From Sphingobium arseniciresistens (GTDB lineage Bacteria; Pseudomonadota; Alphaproteobacteria; Sphingomonadales; Sphingomonadaceae), in contig JARFNK010000005.1 of NCBI GenBank assembly GCA_029167225.1, forward strand, positions 62,001-126,000: a stretch of 64,000 nt of DNA, written 5' to 3'. The translations under genes and the position numbers were made by a program. Shown here in pieces: positions 7,357 through 57,161 of this stretch. The number at the start of each line of letters is the position of its first letter. The first letter of the stretch is position 1. The notes under the pieces are model-generated. The model saw only the letters and a program-made list of their open reading frames with translations, was not told the origin of the DNA and did no database searches.

Positions 7357-8319
7357 ATGGAGACACGATCCAACCATGTGCTGGTCGGCAGCGTCGTACT
7401 GATCCTGCTCGCCGCGGTGATGCTGGCAGCCTTCTGGTTCTCCCGCATTTCCGATGGGCAGGACAAGCTGTTCGACATCTATTTCAAGCAGTCGGTGAAC
7501 GGCCTCGCCAAGGGATCCAGCGTCAACTATTCGGGCGTGCCGATGGGCCAAGTGAAGACCATCGAGCTGTGGAAGCGCGACCCCAGCTTCGTGAAGGTCC
7601 GCATTGCCGTGAAGGACGGGACGCCCGTGCTGCAGGGCACCACCGCGACCATTTCCGGCGTGGGCTTTACCGGCGTGTCGGAAATCGTGCTGGACGGCGC
7701 GGTGAAGGGCGCCCCGCCGATCATCTGCCCGGAGATCAACACGCTCGCCTCCTGCCCAGACGGCGTTCCCGTGATCCCGACCAAGCCCGGCGCGCTGGGC
7801 GAGCTGCTCAACAATGCGCCGCAGCTGCTGGAGCGGCTGTCGACGCTGACAGAGCGGCTGACGGAATTGCTGAACGACAAGAACCAGCGTTCCTTCGCCG
7901 GCATCCTCACCAATATCGAGCGCGTTTCGGGCGCGCTGGCCGATCGCGGGCCGGAGATTGCGGCGACGCTGGCCGAAACCCGCATGGCCGTGCAGAAGGC
8001 CGGTATTGCCGCGGAACAGATTGGCAAGCTCGCCGGCACCACGAACACGCTGCTCGATGGCGAGGGCCGGCCGCTGATGTCTGACCTGCGCAAGTCGATC
8101 CAGTCGGCCAACCAGAGCATCGACACGCTGAACGCGACGATCGCCGATGCGCGGCCGGGCGTTCAGGCCTTCTCCAACCAGACCATGCCGGAAGTCGGCC
8201 AACTGGTCCGCGATTTGCGCGAAATGTCCCGGTCCATCCGCTCCGTCTCCGAAAAGCTGGACCAGCAGGGCGCCGGATCGCTGATCGGATCGCCCAAGCT
8301 GCCGGACTACAAGCCATGA
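7357..8319 (+). CDS. mlaD: MlaD/MCE-family lipid-binding protein
   Basis: 320 aa. One N-terminal membrane anchor (HVLVGSVVLILLAAVMLAAFWF) is followed by a single MCE domain (FDIYFKQSVNGLAKGSSVNYSGVPMGQVKTI) and a long helical C-terminal tail with repeated coiled-coil character up to the end. MCE proteins form hexameric periplasmic rings that carry lipids. The tail is longer than in E. coli MlaD (183 aa) and could extend a tunnel across the periplasm, as known for longer MCE members. Seven bp after mlaF; the stop overlaps the next start (ATGA). Confidence 0.92.
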   Translation: METRSNHVLVGSVVLILLAAVMLAAFWFSRISDGQDKLFDIYFKQSVNGLAKGSSVNYSGVPMGQVKTIELWKRDPSFVKVRIAVKDGTPVLQGTTATISGVGFTGVSEIVLDGAVKGAPPIICPEINTLASCPDGVPVIPTKPGALGELLNNAPQLLERLSTLTERLTELLNDKNQRSFAGILTNIERVSGALADRGPEIAATLAETRMAVQKAGIAAEQIGKLAGTTNTLLDGEGRPLMSDLRKSIQSANQSIDTLNATIADARPGVQAFSNQTMPEVGQLVRDLREMSRSIRSVSEKLDQQGAGSLIGSPKLPDYKP

Positions 8320-8972
8320 AGGAAGCCCGCTCCATGACCCCCGCCCCCTTCAAAAGCCCGCGCTTCGCCCATGCTCGCGCCGCCTTGCGCGCCTTGCCGC
8401 TGGCCGTCCTGATGGTTGCCGGCCTTTCGGGCTGCGTGTCCTTCGGGTCGAAGCCGCCCAAGAGCCTGCTGTCGCTGAGCGCCGACAACAAGGTCGCCGT
8501 GGGCGCCAGCCGGACTGCGGCCAAGGGCAAGAGCATCACGGTGGGCGATCCCGAAACACCCAAGAGTCTGGATACGGTGCGTATCCCCATCCAGGTGACG
8601 CCAACCTCCGTCGCCTATCTCACCGGCACGCAATGGGTCGACACCCCCCGTCACCTGTTCCGCAAGCTGTTGTCGGAAACGATCGCGGCGAGCGGCGACA
8701 TGATCGTGCTCGATCCGGGCCAATATTCGGCTGACCCGGGCCGTCGCCTGCTGGGCGAACTCGTCGATTTCGGCGTCGACGCAGGATCACGCACCGCCAT
8801 CGTCACCTATGACGCGACGCTCGCATCGGCCGATGGCAGCGCCATCACCCGCCGGCGCTTTTCCGCCAGCGTGCCTGTTGGTCAGATCGATGCTGCGACC
8901 GTGGGCGATCCGCTCAACCGTGCAGCAAACAAGGTAGCAGCAGATGTCGCCGCATGGGTCGCGCAGAACTGA
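8316..8972 (+). CDS. ABC-type transport auxiliary lipoprotein (PqiC/YrbC-like role)
   Basis: 218 aa. A signal peptide ends in the lipobox LSGC (near residue 38), so it is a lipoprotein. The body (SLSADNKVAVGASR, IQVTPTSVAYLTGTQWVDTPRHLFRKLL, VDFGVDAGSRTAIVTYDATL) matches the family of lipoprotein partners of MCE transporters, similar to PqiC. It takes the place of MlaC/MlaA in E. coli and would sit on the outer membrane as a docking factor. It is the last gene of the mla operon. An alternative start at 8334 is possible; 8316 is favoured by the ATGA overlap with mlaD. Confidence 0.85.
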   Translation: MKEARSMTPAPFKSPRFAHARAALRALPLAVLMVAGLSGCVSFGSKPPKSLLSLSADNKVAVGASRTAAKGKSITVGDPETPKSLDTVRIPIQVTPTSVAYLTGTQWVDTPRHLFRKLLSETIAASGDMIVLDPGQYSADPGRRLLGELVDFGVDAGSRTAIVTYDATLASADGSAITRRRFSASVPVGQIDAATVGDPLNRAANKVAADVAAWVAQN

Positions 8973-9114: not shown

Positions 9115-9179
9115 TTGCAACCTTTGCAACCGGGGATCGGACTTTCGCACTTGCAGCATAGCAGCTTGCAACGCATATA
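9115..9179 (+). promoter_or_regulatory. Putative promoter with three TTGCAAC repeats
   Basis: TTGCAAC occurs at 9115-9121, 9124-9130 (9 bp apart) and 9166-9172. A -35-like TTGCAG (9151-9156) lies 17 bp from a weak -10 CATATA (9174-9179), or 19 bp from TATAGA (9176-9181). The set points into the terminator-bearing RNA at 9182. Spaced repeats suggest a bound regulator. The exact promoter is uncertain. Confidence 0.4.
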
Positions 9180-9181
9180 GA

Positions 9182-9249
9182 GGGTGCCTTTCAGGCATCC
9201 TCTCCTAAAACTTTCAATGGGCTGGTCTGCGGATCGGCCCTATTTTTTT
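9182..9249 (+). ncRNA. Probable trans-acting small RNA with CUCUCCU tract
   Basis: Two hairpins flank a single-stranded tract. The 5' hairpin is GGGTGCC-TTTCA-GGCATCC (9182-9200), the tract CTCTCCTAAAAC is at 9200-9211, and the 3' hairpin with T7 is an intrinsic terminator (9219-9249). No ORF lies inside or near it and nothing on the plus strand follows. A pyrimidine-rich anti-Shine-Dalgarno tract between hairpins is the usual build of alphaproteobacterial regulatory sRNAs. I cannot match it to a named family. The 5' end is a guess from the upstream promoter-like bases. Confidence 0.55.
9219..9249 (+). terminator. Intrinsic terminator
   Basis: A 9-bp stem (GGGCTGGTC, loop TGCG, GATCGGCCC; two G-U pairs) at 9219-9240 is followed by TA and seven T (9243-9249). 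It ends the putative sRNA, or read-through from the mla operon. Confidence 0.85.
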
Positions 9250-9348
9250 ATCTGGAGTTGCGTTATAGCGGTTTTTGCTGCTGCCGCGCCAAGATAATAA
9301 ATCGAGGAGCGGTGCCGCCGGTAAGACCGGCAATGGCGAGGCATCAGC

Positions 9349-17141: not shown

Positions 17142-17194
17142 GAGCGGAGGCCCGAAGGCTGCTCTTGAACCGTGCGACAGGCACAAGAGGCCTT
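17142..17194 (+). ncRNA. Structured RNA element, copy A
   Basis: GAGC (17142-17145) can pair with GCTC (17161-17164) around a loop containing GGAG and CCCGAAGG. Alternatively AAGGC+CTCTTG (17155-17167, TG bulge) pairs with CAAGAGGCCTT (17184-17194) around a loop with CGTGCGACA. The two folds exclude each other. The same bases and both alternative folds recur at 53967-54017. Family unknown; strand chosen by comparison with the terminator-bearing copy B. Confidence 0.5.
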
Positions 17195-17205
17195 CTAAAA
17201 CATAA

Positions 17206-17261
17206 GACAGCGCTGTCAAGACAGCGATGTCATTGCCGTTTGTCTTTCAATGCGCTTAAGA
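17206..17261 (+). promoter_or_regulatory. Tandem LacI-type operators and promoter
   Basis: A perfect palindrome GACAGCGCTGTC (17206-17217) is followed two bases later by GACAGCGATGTC (17220-17231), one mismatch from it. CG-centred dyads of this kind are typical LacI-family operators. Downstream, -35 TTGCCG (17233-17238) and -10 TTAAGA (17256-17261) are 17 bp apart, 46 bp before the regulator's ATG. Autoregulation by the adjacent LacI protein is the natural inference. Confidence 0.7.
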
Positions 17262-17307: not shown

Positions 17308-18321
17308 ATGAAGAAAATCACGATCATGGATGTCGCCAGGCATGCGGGCGTGTCCATGAAAAGCGTGTCCAGGGTCATCAATGCGGAACCCAATGTCGGC
17401 GCAGGCCTGCGCGAACGGGTGATGACGGCGGTGCATGACCTTGGCTACCAGCCCAATCTCGCCGCCCGATCCCTGGCCGCCGGCCGCTCCTTCGTCATCG
17501 GGGTGCTGTTCGACAATCCCAGCCCGAACTACACGATGAAGGTGCAGGAAGGCATTTATGCCGCCTGCCGGCGCGCCGGCTACCAGCTGGTGATCGAACA
17601 TGTGGACATCAGCGCGCCCGATGTTGAGGCGACGATGGACAAGATGCTCGCCAACCGCCGGCTCGACGGCCTCGTCCTCACACCGCCGGTAACCGATTCC
17701 GACAGGGTGCTGGCCGGGATAGAGGCGCATGGCGTCGCCTATGTCCGGCTTTCCCCCGGCCGCTTCCCAGGTCGATCCTCGTTCGTCGCCACCAATGACA
17801 GCGCGGGTGCCGGGGAACTGGCGGACCATCTCTGGGCACAGGGTCATCGCATCTTCGGTATCGCAAACGGACCGCCTACCCATGCCGCGACCAATTGGCG
17901 GCGGGAGGGCTTTCTTGCCGCACTGGCACGCCACGGCCTGCCGGATGGCGACCTGATGGAAGTGGACGGCAATTTCACCTTCCAGTCGGGCATCGCGGCC
18001 GGACTGGCATTGTTGACGAGCGATCGCCGCCCCACCGCCCTGTTCGCCGCGAATGACGACATGGCCGCCGGCATCTTCGCCGCCGCGGCACAGCTCGACA
18101 TCCGCATCCCGGATCAGCTTTCGGTCGTGGGGTTCGACGATAGCTGGATCGCCGAAAGCGTGTGGCCGGCCCTCACCACCGTCCACCAGCCGATCGCCGA
18201 AATGGCCCAGCTGGCGGCCGACATGCTGATCGCGGGCAAGGGAGCCGCGGCGGGTTCGCGCACGGCCCATCTCGATTGCCGACTGATCCTCCGCGGATCG
18301 ACGGCGCCAGCTCACAACTGA
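17308..18321 (+). CDS. LacI-family transcriptional regulator
   Basis: 337 aa. The N-terminal HTH and hinge (TIMDVARHAGVSMKSVSRVIN then GYQPNLAARSLAAGRS) are followed by a periplasmic-binding-type effector domain (VIGVLFDNPSPNY, LSVVGFDDSWIAESVWPALTTV). Such regulators repress sugar-uptake genes until the sugar binds. Tandem dyads 17206-17231 upstream are likely its operators. No sugar genes are adjacent; the converging gene is an SDR. An ATG four bases earlier is out of frame. Confidence 0.92.
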   Translation: MKKITIMDVARHAGVSMKSVSRVINAEPNVGAGLRERVMTAVHDLGYQPNLAARSLAAGRSFVIGVLFDNPSPNYTMKVQEGIYAACRRAGYQLVIEHVDISAPDVEATMDKMLANRRLDGLVLTPPVTDSDRVLAGIEAHGVAYVRLSPGRFPGRSSFVATNDSAGAGELADHLWAQGHRIFGIANGPPTHAATNWRREGFLAALARHGLPDGDLMEVDGNFTFQSGIAAGLALLTSDRRPTALFAANDDMAAGIFAAAAQLDIRIPDQLSVVGFDDSWIAESVWPALTTVHQPIAEMAQLAADMLIAGKGAAAGSRTAHLDCRLILRGSTAPAHN

Positions 18322-52696: not shown

Positions 52697-53743
52697 TCAG
52701 GCGTCGGTTCCCACCATCTCGGCGATCGTACGGACACCGTCGCGCTGCATCAGCGCCTTCAGGCCGCGCGTGATCCGCCGGGCGAGCCAGGGGCCTTCAT
52801 AGACCATGGCGCTGTAGAACTGGATCAGGCTGGCGCCGGCACGGATGCGGGCATAGGCCTGGTCGGCGGTCTCGATGCCGCCGGCGCCGATCAGCGGCAC
52901 CGTGCCGCCGGTCGCCTTGCGGAAGTCGCGCAGCCGGGCCAGCGCCATGTCGTGCAGCGGCGCGCCCGAAAGCCCGCCCGCCTCGCCGGCATGGCGCGAG
53001 CGCAGCGCCGGACGGGCGAGGGTGGTGTTGGACACGATCAGCGCGTCGACCCGGTGATCGACGACACAGGCGACGATGTCGTCGATATCGGCAGGCTCCA
53101 GATCGGGCGCGACCTTGAGGAAAATGGGTGGGCCGTCCTCCCCCCGTGCGGCCATCACCGCCGCGAGCAGCGCGTCGAGCGCGCCGCGATCCTGCAGCGC
53201 GCGCAGCCCCGGCGTGTTGGGGGAGGAGATATTGACGGTCAGATAGTCGGCATGGGGCGCCATGGTGCGCACGCCGGTGGCATAGTCGGCGATCCTGTCT
53301 GCCGCGTCCTTGTTCGCGCCGATATTGACGCCGATGATGCCGCCACCATTGGGCAGGCGCGGGCGCAGCGCGCCCAGCCGCTGCGCCGCCGCTGCCTGAC
53401 CGCCATTGTTGAAGCCCATGCGGTTGATGACGGCCCGGTCCTCGACCAGCCGGAACACGCGCGCGCGCGGGTTGCCCGCTTGCGGCAGCGGGGTGAGCGT
53501 GCCCAGTTCGGCAAATCCGAAGCCCAGTGCCGGCATTTTGTGTGCGACAAGGCCGTCCTTGTCGAAGCCGGCGGCCAGGCCGACGGGGTTGGGAAAGTCG
53601 ATGCCGGCCACCCGAGTCGCCAGCATCGGATCCGCCGCCAGCGGCCCCGGCGTTGGAAAAACTCCCAAAAGCTTGATCGTCAGGAGATGCGCCGACTCGG
53701 GATCGAGGCGGAAAAGCAGCGGGCGGAGCAGGGCATAGGTCAT
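52697..53743 (-). CDS. pyrD: Dihydroorotate dehydrogenase (quinone)
   Basis: 348 aa, class 2 length with an N-terminal amphipathic helix (LLRPLLFRLDPESAHLL) for membrane attachment. GIDFPNPVGLAAGFDKDG, NRMGFNNGG, LTVNISSPNTPGL and VSNTTLARP (with the catalytic Ser region) are diagnostic. It oxidises dihydroorotate to orotate with quinone, the fourth step of pyrimidine synthesis. Located 101 bp after ggt on the same strand; transcription direction is from pyrD towards ggt. Confidence 0.95.
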   Translation of the reverse strand: MTYALLRPLLFRLDPESAHLLTIKLLGVFPTPGPLAADPMLATRVAGIDFPNPVGLAAGFDKDGLVAHKMPALGFGFAELGTLTPLPQAGNPRARVFRLVEDRAVINRMGFNNGGQAAAAQRLGALRPRLPNGGGIIGVNIGANKDAADRIADYATGVRTMAPHADYLTVNISSPNTPGLRALQDRGALDALLAAVMAARGEDGPPIFLKVAPDLEPADIDDIVACVVDHRVDALIVSNTTLARPALRSRHAGEAGGLSGAPLHDMALARLRDFRKATGGTVPLIGAGGIETADQAYARIRAGASLIQFYSAMVYEGPWLARRITRGLKALMQRDGVRTIAEMVGTDA

Positions 53744-53950
53744 GATCGGCCTATGCCAGCGACTTCCCGGTCGGTCAAAAGATCGAGTCGTGCCCCGATC
53801 CGCACCCTTTCAACCCTCGCTATGGCCCTGTTCAGCCCTCGCCAGGCGCCTGTCTAACGTTGTCATATTGATCTCGCGCAACATCCTTACGCAATCTACG
53901 CGAAATACCGCGTGCGCCGCGGCAAAATGTCGATTCCATACAATAAACTT

Positions 53951-54059
53951 GCGGGCGGACTCGCGTAGAGCCGGAGTGCGACCCGAAGGGCTCTTGGTCG
54001 TGCGACAAAGAGACCTTTTCCTGGCCCGGTGGGATTTATTCTGCCGGGCCATTTTTTTT
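53951..54059 (+). ncRNA. Structured RNA element, copy B, with its own terminator
   Basis: TACAAT (53939-53944) sits ~7 bp before the guessed start. AGAGCC (53967-53972) can pair with GGCTCT (53989-53994) around a loop holding GGAG and CCCGAAGG. Alternatively AAGGGCTCTT (53986-53995) pairs with AAGAGACCTT (54008-54017), one mismatch, around CGTGCGACA. These exclude each other. A strong terminator ends it. It may be a free sRNA or a leader/attenuator of the regulator 174 bp downstream. Copy A is at 17142-17194. Confidence 0.6.
54023..54059 (+). terminator. Strong intrinsic terminator
   Basis: GGCCCGG (54023-54029) pairs perfectly with CCGGGCC (54044-54050) across a 14-base loop, followed by A and eight T. 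Confidence 0.9.
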
Positions 54060-54169
54060 GCCCTTTCGCAACCACGCGAGCGCACCCGCATCTGCCTTCG
54101 CGGGCGATCGACTGTTGCGCTGCGGCAAGTCGTGCCGCAAGTAAGGGACTTTCCTAGGGGGGAAGAAAG

Positions 54170-54232: not shown

Positions 54233-55117
54233 GTGCCTGACCGCCACGCTTTTCTTCAACAGCTACCCGAAGGCTTCGTTGGCCTGCGCTATTTTGCGCC
54301 GCCTGAAACTCTTCGCCACGCCTTCGGCGCGCTCTATCTGTTCACCGCGGATCGACCGAATTTCACCGATACCACGCGCGCCGATTTCGGGCAGCTGCGC
54401 TTCATGCTCAACGGCTCGGGTTTTTATCGCTTTCACGACGGGCGAGAGATGCCGACGCCGCGGGTGTGCCTGCTCGGCCCGACCTTCGGCGCAACCCGTT
54501 TCGTGCTCGACAGCCCGGCCTGTGTATTGGGCGTCTCGCTGCTGCCGCTGGGCTGGCTCGCCATAGACGGCGACGATGCCAGCCGGATGAGCGATTGCCT
54601 GGCGGACATGACCCTTGCCGACGCCAGCTATGGGACACTGCTCCAGACATTATCCCAGATCGACGATGTGGACCGGGCGATCGACGCCATCTGGGGCTTC
54701 CTCGCGCCGCGCGTACCGCCGCCGCCGCCGGCTGTCGCGCGCTTCGTGGATGCGGTCGACAACTGGCTGGCGGACGAGACATCGCCCAGCATCGAAATGC
54801 TTGCCGCCGCGACGGACCTTTCCGGCCGCCAGCGGGCGCGGCTGGCCAACCGGCTCTATGGCGCGCCGCCCAAGCTGCTCGCCCGTAAATATCGGGCGTT
54901 GCGCTGCGCCGCCAAGATCGTCGTGGACAAGCAACCCTGGGCGGAATTGTGCGACGAGGGCACATTCTACGACCAGTCTCATTTCATTCGCGAGATCCGC
55001 CACTTCATCGGCCTCACCCCGCATCAGCTGATGTCGGACCCGACGGACGTTGCCCGCCTGACGCTGCAGCGACGCGACATGGGCGGCTCCGTGGCCGAGA
55101 TCAACCGTATCAGCTGA
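54233..55117 (+). CDS. AraC-like transcriptional regulator
   Basis: 294 aa starting with GTG. The N-terminal ~150 residues form a cupin-like sensing part (RFMLNGSGFYRFHDGREMPTPRVCLLGPT). The C-terminal third carries two HTH motifs (SIEMLAAATDLSGRQRARLANRLYG; TFYDQSHFIREIRHFIGLTPHQL), as in AraC proteins. Effector and targets are unknown. No ribosome site precedes the GTG; the preceding leader ORF ends 3 bp upstream. The next gene downstream is the suf regulator, 155 bp away. Confidence 0.82.
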   Translation: MPDRHAFLQQLPEGFVGLRYFAPPETLRHAFGALYLFTADRPNFTDTTRADFGQLRFMLNGSGFYRFHDGREMPTPRVCLLGPTFGATRFVLDSPACVLGVSLLPLGWLAIDGDDASRMSDCLADMTLADASYGTLLQTLSQIDDVDRAIDAIWGFLAPRVPPPPPAVARFVDAVDNWLADETSPSIEMLAAATDLSGRQRARLANRLYGAPPKLLARKYRALRCAAKIVVDKQPWAELCDEGTFYDQSHFIREIRHFIGLTPHQLMSDPTDVARLTLQRRDMGGSVAEINRIS

Positions 55118-55272: not shown

Positions 55273-55683
55273 ATGAGACTGTCGAGCTTCGCCGACTATG
55301 CGGTGGTCATGATGTCCGCCGCGGCGCGCCATTGCGGCGCCACGAAGATGAACGCGACGACGCTGTCCGCCGAAACCGGCATTCCGCTGCCGACCGCGCA
55401 GAAGCTGGTCAGCCGCCTGTCGGCCGCCGGCCTGCTCGAATCCAGCCGTGGCACGGGGGGCGGCGTGCGCCTCAGCCGACCGCCCGCCACGATCAGCCTC
55501 GCCGACGTGGTGGAGGCGGTGGAAGGTCCGATCGCCATGACCACCTGCGCCGATCAGGGCGCGCATGACTGCACGCTGGAGCAGGACTGCCGCGTGAAGC
55601 CGCATATGAACATCGCCAATGCCGCCGTGCGCCAGGCGCTCGCCGGCGTCAGCATTGCCAGCCTTTCCCGGGAACCCGCATGA
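55273..55683 (+). CDS. Rrf2-family Fe-S regulator of the suf operon
   Basis: 136 aa. An N-terminal winged HTH ([41 protein letters not shown]) and three cysteines in [21 protein letters not shown], spaced C-x7-C-x5-C as in Fe-S-sensing Rrf2/IscR proteins. It most likely represses the operon when clusters are plentiful. It is the first gene; its stop overlaps the sufB start (ATGA). Called 'SUF system regulator' in relatives. Confidence 0.9.
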
Positions 55684-57161
55684 CGCAAGACGTGACCATC
55701 AAGAACCGCGAAGCACAGGAAGCGGCCGACCGCGCGTCCGTCTACGAGCATGGCTGGTCGTCGGCGATCGAACAGGATTTCGCGCCCAAGGGGCTGAACG
55801 AGGATACCGTCCGCTTCATCTCCGCCAAGAAGAACGAGCCGCAATGGCTGCTCGACTGGCGGCTGAAGGCCTTTGCGATGTGGAAGACGATGACGCCGCC
55901 GGACTGGGCGAAGCTCAACGTCCCGCCGATCGACTATCAGGACGCCTATTATTACGCCGAGCCCAAGAAGAAGACCGAGCTGAATTCGCTGGACGAGCTC
56001 GACCCGGAGATTCTGGCGACCTACAAGAAGCTGGGCATCCCCATCGCCGAGCAGGAAGTGCTGGCCGGCGTCAAGGGCGCGCGCAAGGTCGCGGTGGACG
56101 CGGTGTTCGACAGCGTCTCCGTCGCCACCACCTTCCGCAAGGAACTGGAGGAGGCGGGCGTCATCTTCCGCTCGATCAGCGAGGCGGTGCGCGAATATCC
56201 CGATCTGGTGAAGAAGTGGCTGGGCAAGGTCGTGCCGATGCACGACAATTATTTCGCGACATTGAACTGCGCGGTCTTCTCCGACGGCACCTTCGTCTAC
56301 ATCCCTGAGGGCGTGCGCTGCCCGATGGAGCTTTCCACCTATTTCCGCATCAATGCGGAGAATACCGGCCAGTTCGAGCGCACGCTGATCGTCGCCGACA
56401 AGGGCAGCTATGTCAGCTATCTGGAAGGTTGCACCGCGCCGATGCGCGACGAGAACCAGTTGCACGCCGCCGTGGTCGAGCTGGTCGCGCTGGACGACGC
56501 CGAGATCAAATATTCGACCGTGCAGAACTGGTATCCCGGCGACGCGGACGGCAAGGGCGGCATCTATAATTTCGTCACCAAGCGCGCCCTGTGCCAGGGC
56601 CGCAACAGCAAGACCAGCTGGACGCAGGTGGAAACCGGCAGCGCCATCACCTGGAAATATCCCAGCTGCGTGCTGGCGGGCGAGAACAGCGTGGGCGAAT
56701 TCTATTCCGTCGCGCTCACCAACAACATGCAGCAGGCCGACACGGGCACGAAGATGATCCACCTGGGCAAGGGCAGCCGGTCGACGATCATCTCCAAGGG
56801 CATCAGCGCCGGCCGGTCGAACAACACCTATCGCGGCCTCGTCCGCGTCGGCCCCACGGCCGAGGGCGTGCGCAACTTCACCCAGTGCGACAGCCTGCTG
56901 CTGGGCGACCAGTGCGGCGCGCATACCGTGCCCTATATCGAGGTGCGCAACCCCAGCGCCCAGATCGAGCATGAGGCGACGACCAGCAAGATCAGCGATG
57001 ACCAGCTGTTCTACGCCATGCAGCGCGGGCTGGACCAGGAAAGCGCCGTGTCGCTGATCGTGAACGGCTTCGCCAAGGAAGTGTTGCAGCAGTTGCCGAT
57101 GGAATTCGCCGTCGAAGCGCAGAAGCTGCTGGGGATTTCGCTGGAGGGCAGTGTGGGGTGA
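55680..57161 (+). CDS. sufB: Fe-S cluster assembly protein SufB
   Basis: 493 aa. [30 protein letters not shown]-like ELSTYFRIN and [25 protein letters not shown] identify SufB, the scaffold on which clusters form in SufBC2D. The conserved Cys/Glu near the C-terminus ([14 protein letters not shown]-like [15 protein letters not shown]) lies in the DFH region. Second gene of the operon. After it comes a repeat (57181-57273) and then two unrecognised genes before sufC. Confidence 0.96.

What the first reader, a model, noticed from the sequence alone, without database searches (positions are those of the whole stretch)
53967..54017. A structured RNA element occurs twice, with two exclusive folds
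17142-17194 and 53967-54017 share, in order, GGAG, CCCGAAGG, GCTCTTG, CGTGCGACA, AGAG and CCTT. In both, GAGC(C) can pair with (G)GCTC, or AAGG-CTCTT can pair with AAGAG-CCTT; the two folds compete for the CTCTT strand. The base-paired parts differ between copies while pairing is mostly kept (AAGGC/GCCTT in A; AAGG/CCTT with one mismatch in B). Copy B has a TACAAT box and a strong terminator, copy A does not. Each lies upstream of a transcription-regulator gene on the same strand. I know no named family that fits.
Basis: partly seen in the sequence, partly recalled or inferred. Interest (0 to 1): 0.8.

Follow-up and report, generated by a model that had tools for sequence, protein, structure and literature searches.

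The report
Sphingomonad small RNA with fixed seed
Next to the iron-sulfur assembly genes of this Sphingobium lies a gene for an undescribed small RNA of about 80 bases whose opening bases recur unchanged in relatives from about half of the sampled genera of its family while the rest varies, so it is probably a conserved regulator of other messages; the second copy that was reported is not one.

Summary
Copy B (53967-54017) is part of a real, conserved small-RNA gene. The likely transcript is 53978-54059 (+): a single-stranded 5' end GCGACCCG, a hairpin opening with AAGG, and an intrinsic terminator. Blastn matches occur in 86 of 91 same-genus (Sphingobium) genomes; of 50 such places read, 49 hold the exact 12-base 5' stretch. 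Its first ten bases plus a T-run at the right distance are found in 134 of 298 Sphingomonadaceae genomes and 51 of 96 genera; the reversed control hits 12 genomes. Outside the family the motif is at control level. The main locus is mostly syntenic: pyrD, RNA, (AraC-type gene), suf regulator, sufB. TA at the -10 place in 57 of 64 dissimilar promoters puts the start at or beside the first G. Many genomes carry sibling RNAs with the same opening and other bodies. Best reading: trans-acting base-pairing sRNAs with a 5'-terminal seed; no target was found. No Rfam family matches. Copy A is not a member; the switch and leader readings are not supported.

The parts
53978..54059 (+). Inferred sRNA (about 82 nt)
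   Evidence: Conserved from GCGACC to the T-run in 54 aligned relatives; fold z -3.95; start inferred from TA at -12/-11; no transcript data
53978..53985 (+). Single-stranded 5' end GCGACCCG, proposed seed, start of the fixed stretch GCGACCCGAAGG
   Evidence: Exact 12 bases in 30 of 30 best and 19 of 20 weaker blastn places of the genus; first 6 nt unpaired in the MFE of 105 of 113 relatives. In alignments A1 and A3 the rows were picked by this motif, so invariance there is partly built in
53985..54019 (+). First hairpin (AAGGGCUCUU...AAGAGACCUU)
   Evidence: a first hairpin found in 113 of 113 relatives folded singly
54022..54059 (+). Intrinsic terminator (13-bp stem and T8)
   Evidence: both-side changes at 8 of the 11 stem pairs modelled in Sphingobium
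53966..53971 (+). -10 element TAGAGC
   Evidence: TA starting at -13 to -11 in 57 of 64 mutually dissimilar upstream regions
53928..53945 (+). Conserved upstream block TGTCGATTCCATACAATA (about -50 to -33), probable activator site
   Evidence: CAA at -38..-35 in 54 of 64 and TGTC near -50 in 44 of 64 dissimilar promoters
53932..53936 (.). GANTC site (GATTC) inside the upstream block
   Evidence: GANTC starting at -47..-42 in 15 of 64 dissimilar promoters
53958..53962 (.). GANTC site (GACTC) between -35 and -10
   Evidence: GANTC starting at -23..-18 in 18 of 64 dissimilar promoters
52697..53743 (-). Neighbour: pyrD, quinone-dependent dihydroorotate dehydrogenase (divergent)
   Evidence: adjacent and divergent at 77 of 88 main-type loci
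54233..55117 (+). Neighbour: AraC-type regulator gene
   Evidence: Pfam HTH_18; a relative at 66 of 88 main-type loci
55273..55683 (+). Neighbour: Rrf2-family regulator, probably of the SUF operon
   Evidence: TIGR00738 over its cut-off; best match TIGR02944 (SUF regulator) just under its cut-off
55680..57161 (+). Neighbour: sufB
   Evidence: Pfam SUFBD_core
17142..17194 (+). Copy A of the finding: judged not a member

Best explanation
53978-54059 (+) encodes a free-standing small regulatory RNA of about 80 nt. Shown by comparison: it is conserved in much of the Sphingomonadaceae, has its own promoter and terminator signals, and is built as an unpaired 5' GCGACCCG, a hairpin opening with AAGG, and an intrinsic terminator. 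Inferred: transcription starts at or next to the first G, so the fixed stretch is the very 5' end; this end acts as a seed that base-pairs with target messages, probably with Hfq on the U-tail, while the hairpin protects and spaces the seed. Sibling RNAs with the same 5' end and other promoters would bring several signals onto one set of targets. The promoter, with GANTC sites and a conserved upstream block, suggests activator-dependent and perhaps CcrM/GcrA-linked transcription. Targets are not known.
For: Conservation: matches in 86 of 91 same-genus genomes; exact 12-base 5' stretch in 49 of 50 of those blastn places that were read, chosen without regard to it; 178 of 313 family genomes with the 15-17 base motif and 0 of 83 genomes of other families of the order; 134 of 298 with 5' end plus T-run against 12 with the reversed control. 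Architecture: first hairpin in 113 of 113, first 6 nt unpaired in 105 of 113; fold z -3.95. Start: TA at -13..-11 in 57 of 64 dissimilar promoters, while each other position holds it in 0-16. Siblings share the first 10-12 bases and the layout. Free-standing: sibling neighbours vary; the main locus keeps the RNA where the AraC gene is missing.
Against: No transcript data were available. No target was found: the 11-base perfect complement is not enriched (17 in this genome against 36 for the reversed control); one candidate in the window (lipoprotein gene, 8440) is not conserved in orthologs; 30 TonB-receptor start regions show no excess pairing (75.5% of shuffled seeds do as well or better). 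164 of 298 family genomes lack the strict pattern; whether they lost the RNA or carry a changed 5' end was not settled. Twelve fixed bases are long for a seed and could be a protein-binding site. Hfq was not tested.
Confidence: 0.68

Rival explanations
1. The RNA acts by binding a protein or an abundant RNA: the fixed GCGACCCGAAGG is a recognition site, and the many siblings raise the dose of a decoy.
For: 12 fixed bases are long for a seed; siblings keep this stretch, the stem base and the layout; no complementary targets were found.
Against: The conserved part is mostly single-stranded and at the 5' end, where base-pairing sRNAs such as RybB hold their seeds (recalled); each RNA carries the stretch once at its start, not as a row of sites.
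Confidence: 0.2
2. It is a cis-acting leader: an attenuator or riboswitch of the downstream AraC or suf regulator gene, with the terminator as the off state.
For: Same strand and conserved order with the AraC/Rrf2/suf genes; a terminator ends the element.
Against: The proposed competing strand is not conserved: GAGC in 6 of 88 main-type RNAs, and it lies in the promoter. Siblings stand elsewhere, 4 of 11 callable ones with the downstream gene on the opposite strand by a rough gene caller. Terminator sequence differs between genera. No systematic search for other antiterminators was made.
Confidence: 0.08
3. A repeated DNA element (REP-like or mobile) rather than an RNA gene.
For: Several copies in many genomes; the 5' stretch also occurs inside a repeated, probably insertion-sequence, stretch (L103-L113).
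Against: Copies share the 5' end and secondary structure, most with a -10 at the same distance (TA in 85 of 88 and 21 of 26); the main copy is mostly syntenic. Flanking duplications were not searched for.
Confidence: 0.04

Closest known systems
SuhB/mmgR (Rfam RF00519)
   Same: Small Hfq-dependent trans sRNA known in sphingomonads (Sphingopyxis granuli, 61 nt; passages of PMC6563040)
   Different: Separate gene: this window holds its own RF00519 match at 9179-9255; no match at B
GsrN (Caulobacter)
   Same: Alphaproteobacterial sRNA with an exposed C-rich 5' element that pairs with a message (passages of PMC5869019)
   Different: BLASTn hits to GsrN are limited to Caulobacteraceae, with putative ones in Rhizobiaceae found by position; it is sigma-T dependent, and the paper names Erythrobacter litoralis as having no apparent gsrN-like gene. 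No EcfG-type promoter motif here (0 of 113)
Sibling sRNA sets such as Qrr, LhrC, AbcR (recalled)
   Same: Several RNAs per genome with a common pairing region, often under different control
   Different: Those siblings share much of their bodies (recalled); here the shared part is the 5' 10-12 bases and the layout
RybB-type sRNAs with a 5'-terminal seed (recalled)
   Same: About 80 nt, seed at the very 5' end, intrinsic terminator
   Different: No sequence relation was looked for beyond Rfam; targets unknown; 30 TonB-receptor start regions gave no signal
GANTC promoters of Caulobacter (CcrM/GcrA)
   Same: GANTC between -10 and -35, a class reported to be switched on at a fixed cell-cycle time (passages of PMC4287350); a GcrA match is in this genome
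   Different: GANTC is not in every promoter (18 of 64 at -23..-18) and there is a further strong upstream block

Membership tests
Intrinsic-terminated trans-acting sRNA (class) | Own promoter and intrinsic terminator bounding a short RNA | tested here: met
   (computational signals only)
Intrinsic-terminated trans-acting sRNA (class) | Transcript of the predicted size | not testable with these tools
   No RNA data
Intrinsic-terminated trans-acting sRNA (class) | Base-pairing with target messages | tested here: inconclusive
   No enriched complement, one candidate rejected, 30 of 96 TonB loci negative; most of the genome not examined
SuhB/mmgR (RF00519) and all Rfam 15 families | Score at or above the gathering threshold | tested here: not met
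   No family at B; best sub-threshold match NsiR1, 22 bits against 39 needed
GsrN | EcfG-type promoter (GGAAC-N16/17-CGTT, recalled) | tested here: not met
   GGAAC-N15..18-CGTT in 0 of 113 upstream regions
GsrN | Place near ecfG/phyR (typical, with exceptions) | tested here: not met
   Neighbours of the main locus are pyrD and suf genes; siblings not examined for it
Riboswitch or attenuator leader | Conserved mutually exclusive pairing | tested here: not met
Riboswitch or attenuator leader | Constant downstream gene on the same strand | tested here: not met
   Main locus mostly yes, siblings no
GcrA/CcrM promoter | GANTC between -10 and -35 | tested here: inconclusive
   52 of 88 main-type promoters, 18 of 64 dissimilar ones; methylation, GcrA binding and CcrM presence not tested
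Same family as copy A (17142-17194) | GCGACCCGAAGG at the start, -10 at the right distance, terminator | tested here: not met

The most novel reading that the evidence does not exclude
A family-wide regulon of sibling RNAs: one unchanging 5' seed placed on many different RNA bodies and promoters, the main one read from a methylation-sensitive (CcrM/GcrA) promoter beside the suf operon, so that replication state and other signals converge on one conserved set of messages, perhaps those of iron-sulfur metabolism.
Probability: 0.15. Interest if true: 0.8.

Novelty: new member of a known kind. Interest (0 to 1): 0.62.

Why it matters
The literature searches here showed few regulatory RNAs described in sphingomonads, which are much used for breaking down pollutants and lignin products. 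A conserved sRNA in about half of the sampled genera, with a fixed 5' end and many siblings, would be a good candidate for a central post-transcriptional regulator there. It also gives a clean case for asking how a seed stays fixed while what surrounds it turns over.

Tried and rejected
Copy A as a paralogue: rejected, although its likeness to B exceeds a simple shuffle. Switch between two folds: not supported. Known Rfam family: none.

Short second matches (bases 44-77 of the query) looked like extra copies; in 11 genomes (L103-L113) they lie in one near-identical repeated stretch, probably an insertion sequence (not tested), and were set aside. Of the same batch of 20, L114-L122 were sRNA-like.

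Motif hits outside the family: 10 of the 17 loci were read; none has a T-run at the right distance.

Targets: perfect 11-base complement, not enriched. Sixty-nine loci (some the same place twice; far from all hits) were read: most sites lie inside reading frames, and several were further sibling sRNAs. Lipoprotein gene at window 8316-8972 with an 11-base complement: 61 of 61 genomes hold the gene, 30 loci were examined, the lipobox stretch was read in 27, one of these at a doubtful place, and the full complement was kept only in this genome. TonB-dependent receptors: 30 of 96 matched loci examined, no excess pairing.

Plasmid collection: no match to the sRNA region.

Rows left out: from A1, L027, L058, L074 and L090 (near-identical, set aside, or end not found cleanly); from A3, L015, L116 and L130; L306 from the set of 114, because it lacks the AAGG stem and looked like a chance match. 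A terminator was a selection criterion for that set, so its presence there is not independent evidence; a few ends may have been cut at a T-run in the terminator loop. The pair types come from single-sequence folds and are always standard pairs; in the Sphingobium alignment the first stem's five modelled pairs do not vary. The alignments' rows were picked by the 5' motif; one search is the check that does not depend on it.

Full report
1. The observation. Both stretches read as quoted. B folds well (53978-54059: -37.7 kcal/mol, z -3.95); A less well (z -1.12 and -1.82 for two spans). A is the best secondary match to B in the window and beats 20 resampled windows (47 against at most 38), yet it fails the tests of kinship: the models built from B's relatives do not list it in the window at E<=10 (R1, R2); with filters off on 201 bases R1 gives it 8.1 bits (E 0.0074 for that short stretch), against 83.7 for B; no relative of its locus was found in 119 other genomes beyond 20-36 base pieces in 13 of them; and the block CGTGCGACA that ties A to B lies in B's freely varying loop, the joined pattern being absent from the other 149 genomes.

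2. B in the genus. A blastn search with 53930-54062 gave matches in 86 of 91 same-genus genomes, some covering only part of the query, and short terminator-side matches in 3 of 59 others of the order. A pattern scan of named genomes gave 58 stretches, most labelled Sphingobium, others Novosphingobium, Sphingomonas, Rhizorhapis, Qipengyuania flava or unnamed assemblies. In 54 aligned sequences GCGACCCGAAGG is followed by a variable hairpin, GAGACC and a terminator. Those rows were picked by the motif, so I read places chosen by blastn alone: the exact 12 bases are in 30 of 30 of the best and in 19 of 20 weaker ones; the exception is a sibling-like RNA beginning GCGACCCGAGGC. RNAalifold finds both-side changes at 8 of 16 pairs, all in the terminator; the first stem's five modelled pairs do not vary in Sphingobium.

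3. B in the family. The motif GCGACCCGAAGG-(0-2)-CTC occurs in 178 of 396 genomes of the order: 178 of 313 of this family and 0 of 83 of other families; the reversed control hits 25 genomes. In the class, outside the family, 17 of 285 have it and 17 of 285 have the control; of those 17 loci 10 were read and none has a T-run at the right distance. The stricter pattern, GCGACCCGAA plus six T 40-70 bases on, is in 77 of 94 Sphingobium genomes (control 6) and in 134 of 298 family genomes and 51 of 96 genera (control 12). Control genomes and family splits were counted by eye from the tables. A few matches look like chance.

4. Anatomy. From all loci held at that time, 185 occurrences of GCGACCCGAA with a terminator hairpin gave 114 distinct RNAs; one was dropped. 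Of the 113 left, all have a first hairpin, 105 have the first six bases unpaired in the MFE, and the length to the fifth T is 62-88 with a median of 78. Eighty-eight have the main body (CTC...GAG); 25 have other bodies. At the pyrD locus of some genera the body has changed while the layout stays (L146, L313-L315, L323).

5. Start site. Relative to the first G of the seed, TA starts at -12 in 57 of 58 Sphingobium promoters and at -13 to -11 in 57 of 64 promoters less than 60% alike. That is where a -10 element belongs if the RNA starts at or next to that G. Loci with other bodies keep it too: 21 of 26 (L306 included). Upstream lies TGTC and CAAT at about -50 to -34. GANTC is concentrated at -23..-18 (18 of 64) and -47..-42 (15 of 64), against 0-7 in the other six-base windows tested. 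In Caulobacter, promoters with GANTC between -10 and -35 form one timed cell-cycle class (passages of PMC4287350). A GcrA match is present in this genome (that search also rang in a Sulfolobus control genome). CcrM was not tested.

6. Neighbourhood. pyrD is adjacent and divergent at 77 of 88 main-type loci; an AraC-type gene follows in 66 and an Rrf2 gene lies downstream in 64 (flanks are often too short to see it); 7 have pyrD and Rrf2 with no AraC gene between. The Rrf2 gene of the window scores just below the cut-off of the SUF-regulator model and above that of the superfamily; sufB follows. Sixteen RNAs lie at loci where none of these three genes was seen: 13 with other bodies and 3 main-like. 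Of the 13, 11 had a downstream reading frame by a rough caller, 4 on the opposite strand.

7. Mechanism. A fixed, unpaired 5' end at the inferred start, a hairpin, a U-tail and siblings with the same 5' end are what a base-pairing sRNA with a 5'-terminal seed looks like. This step is inferred. Target searches gave nothing. The protein-binding rival stays open.

8. Literature. Searches for sphingomonad sRNAs and for the seed as text (listings; passages) showed no description of this RNA; the one text match to the seed is a nifH primer. Most subscription papers and all supplements were out of reach, so it may have been detected without being named.

Noticed in passing
9179-9255 (+): Rfam suhB/mmgR sRNA (49.7 bits), a known Hfq-dependent sRNA family in sphingomonads.
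   Followed up: no
17206-17217: Perfect palindrome GACAGCGCTGTC just downstream of copy A and upstream of a LacI-family gene (17308-18321): perhaps its operator. Copy A's hairpin may belong to that gene's leader.
   Followed up: no
L103-L113: A near-identical repeated stretch in 11 Sphingobium genomes, probably an insertion sequence, contains GAGTGCGACCCGAAGGGCCTCTTG; chance or capture not decided.
   Followed up: partly
window 8440-8450: 11-base complement of the seed at the lipobox of a lipoprotein-like gene; not conserved in orthologs.
   Followed up: yes
L324-L353: TonB-receptor genes of this genome (96 plug matches; 30 loci seen) often have a G-rich ribosome-binding site of the type AGGGG.
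   Followed up: no
53977-53989: The seed with the T before it equals the start of a nifH primer (PolFor); probably coincidence.
   Followed up: no
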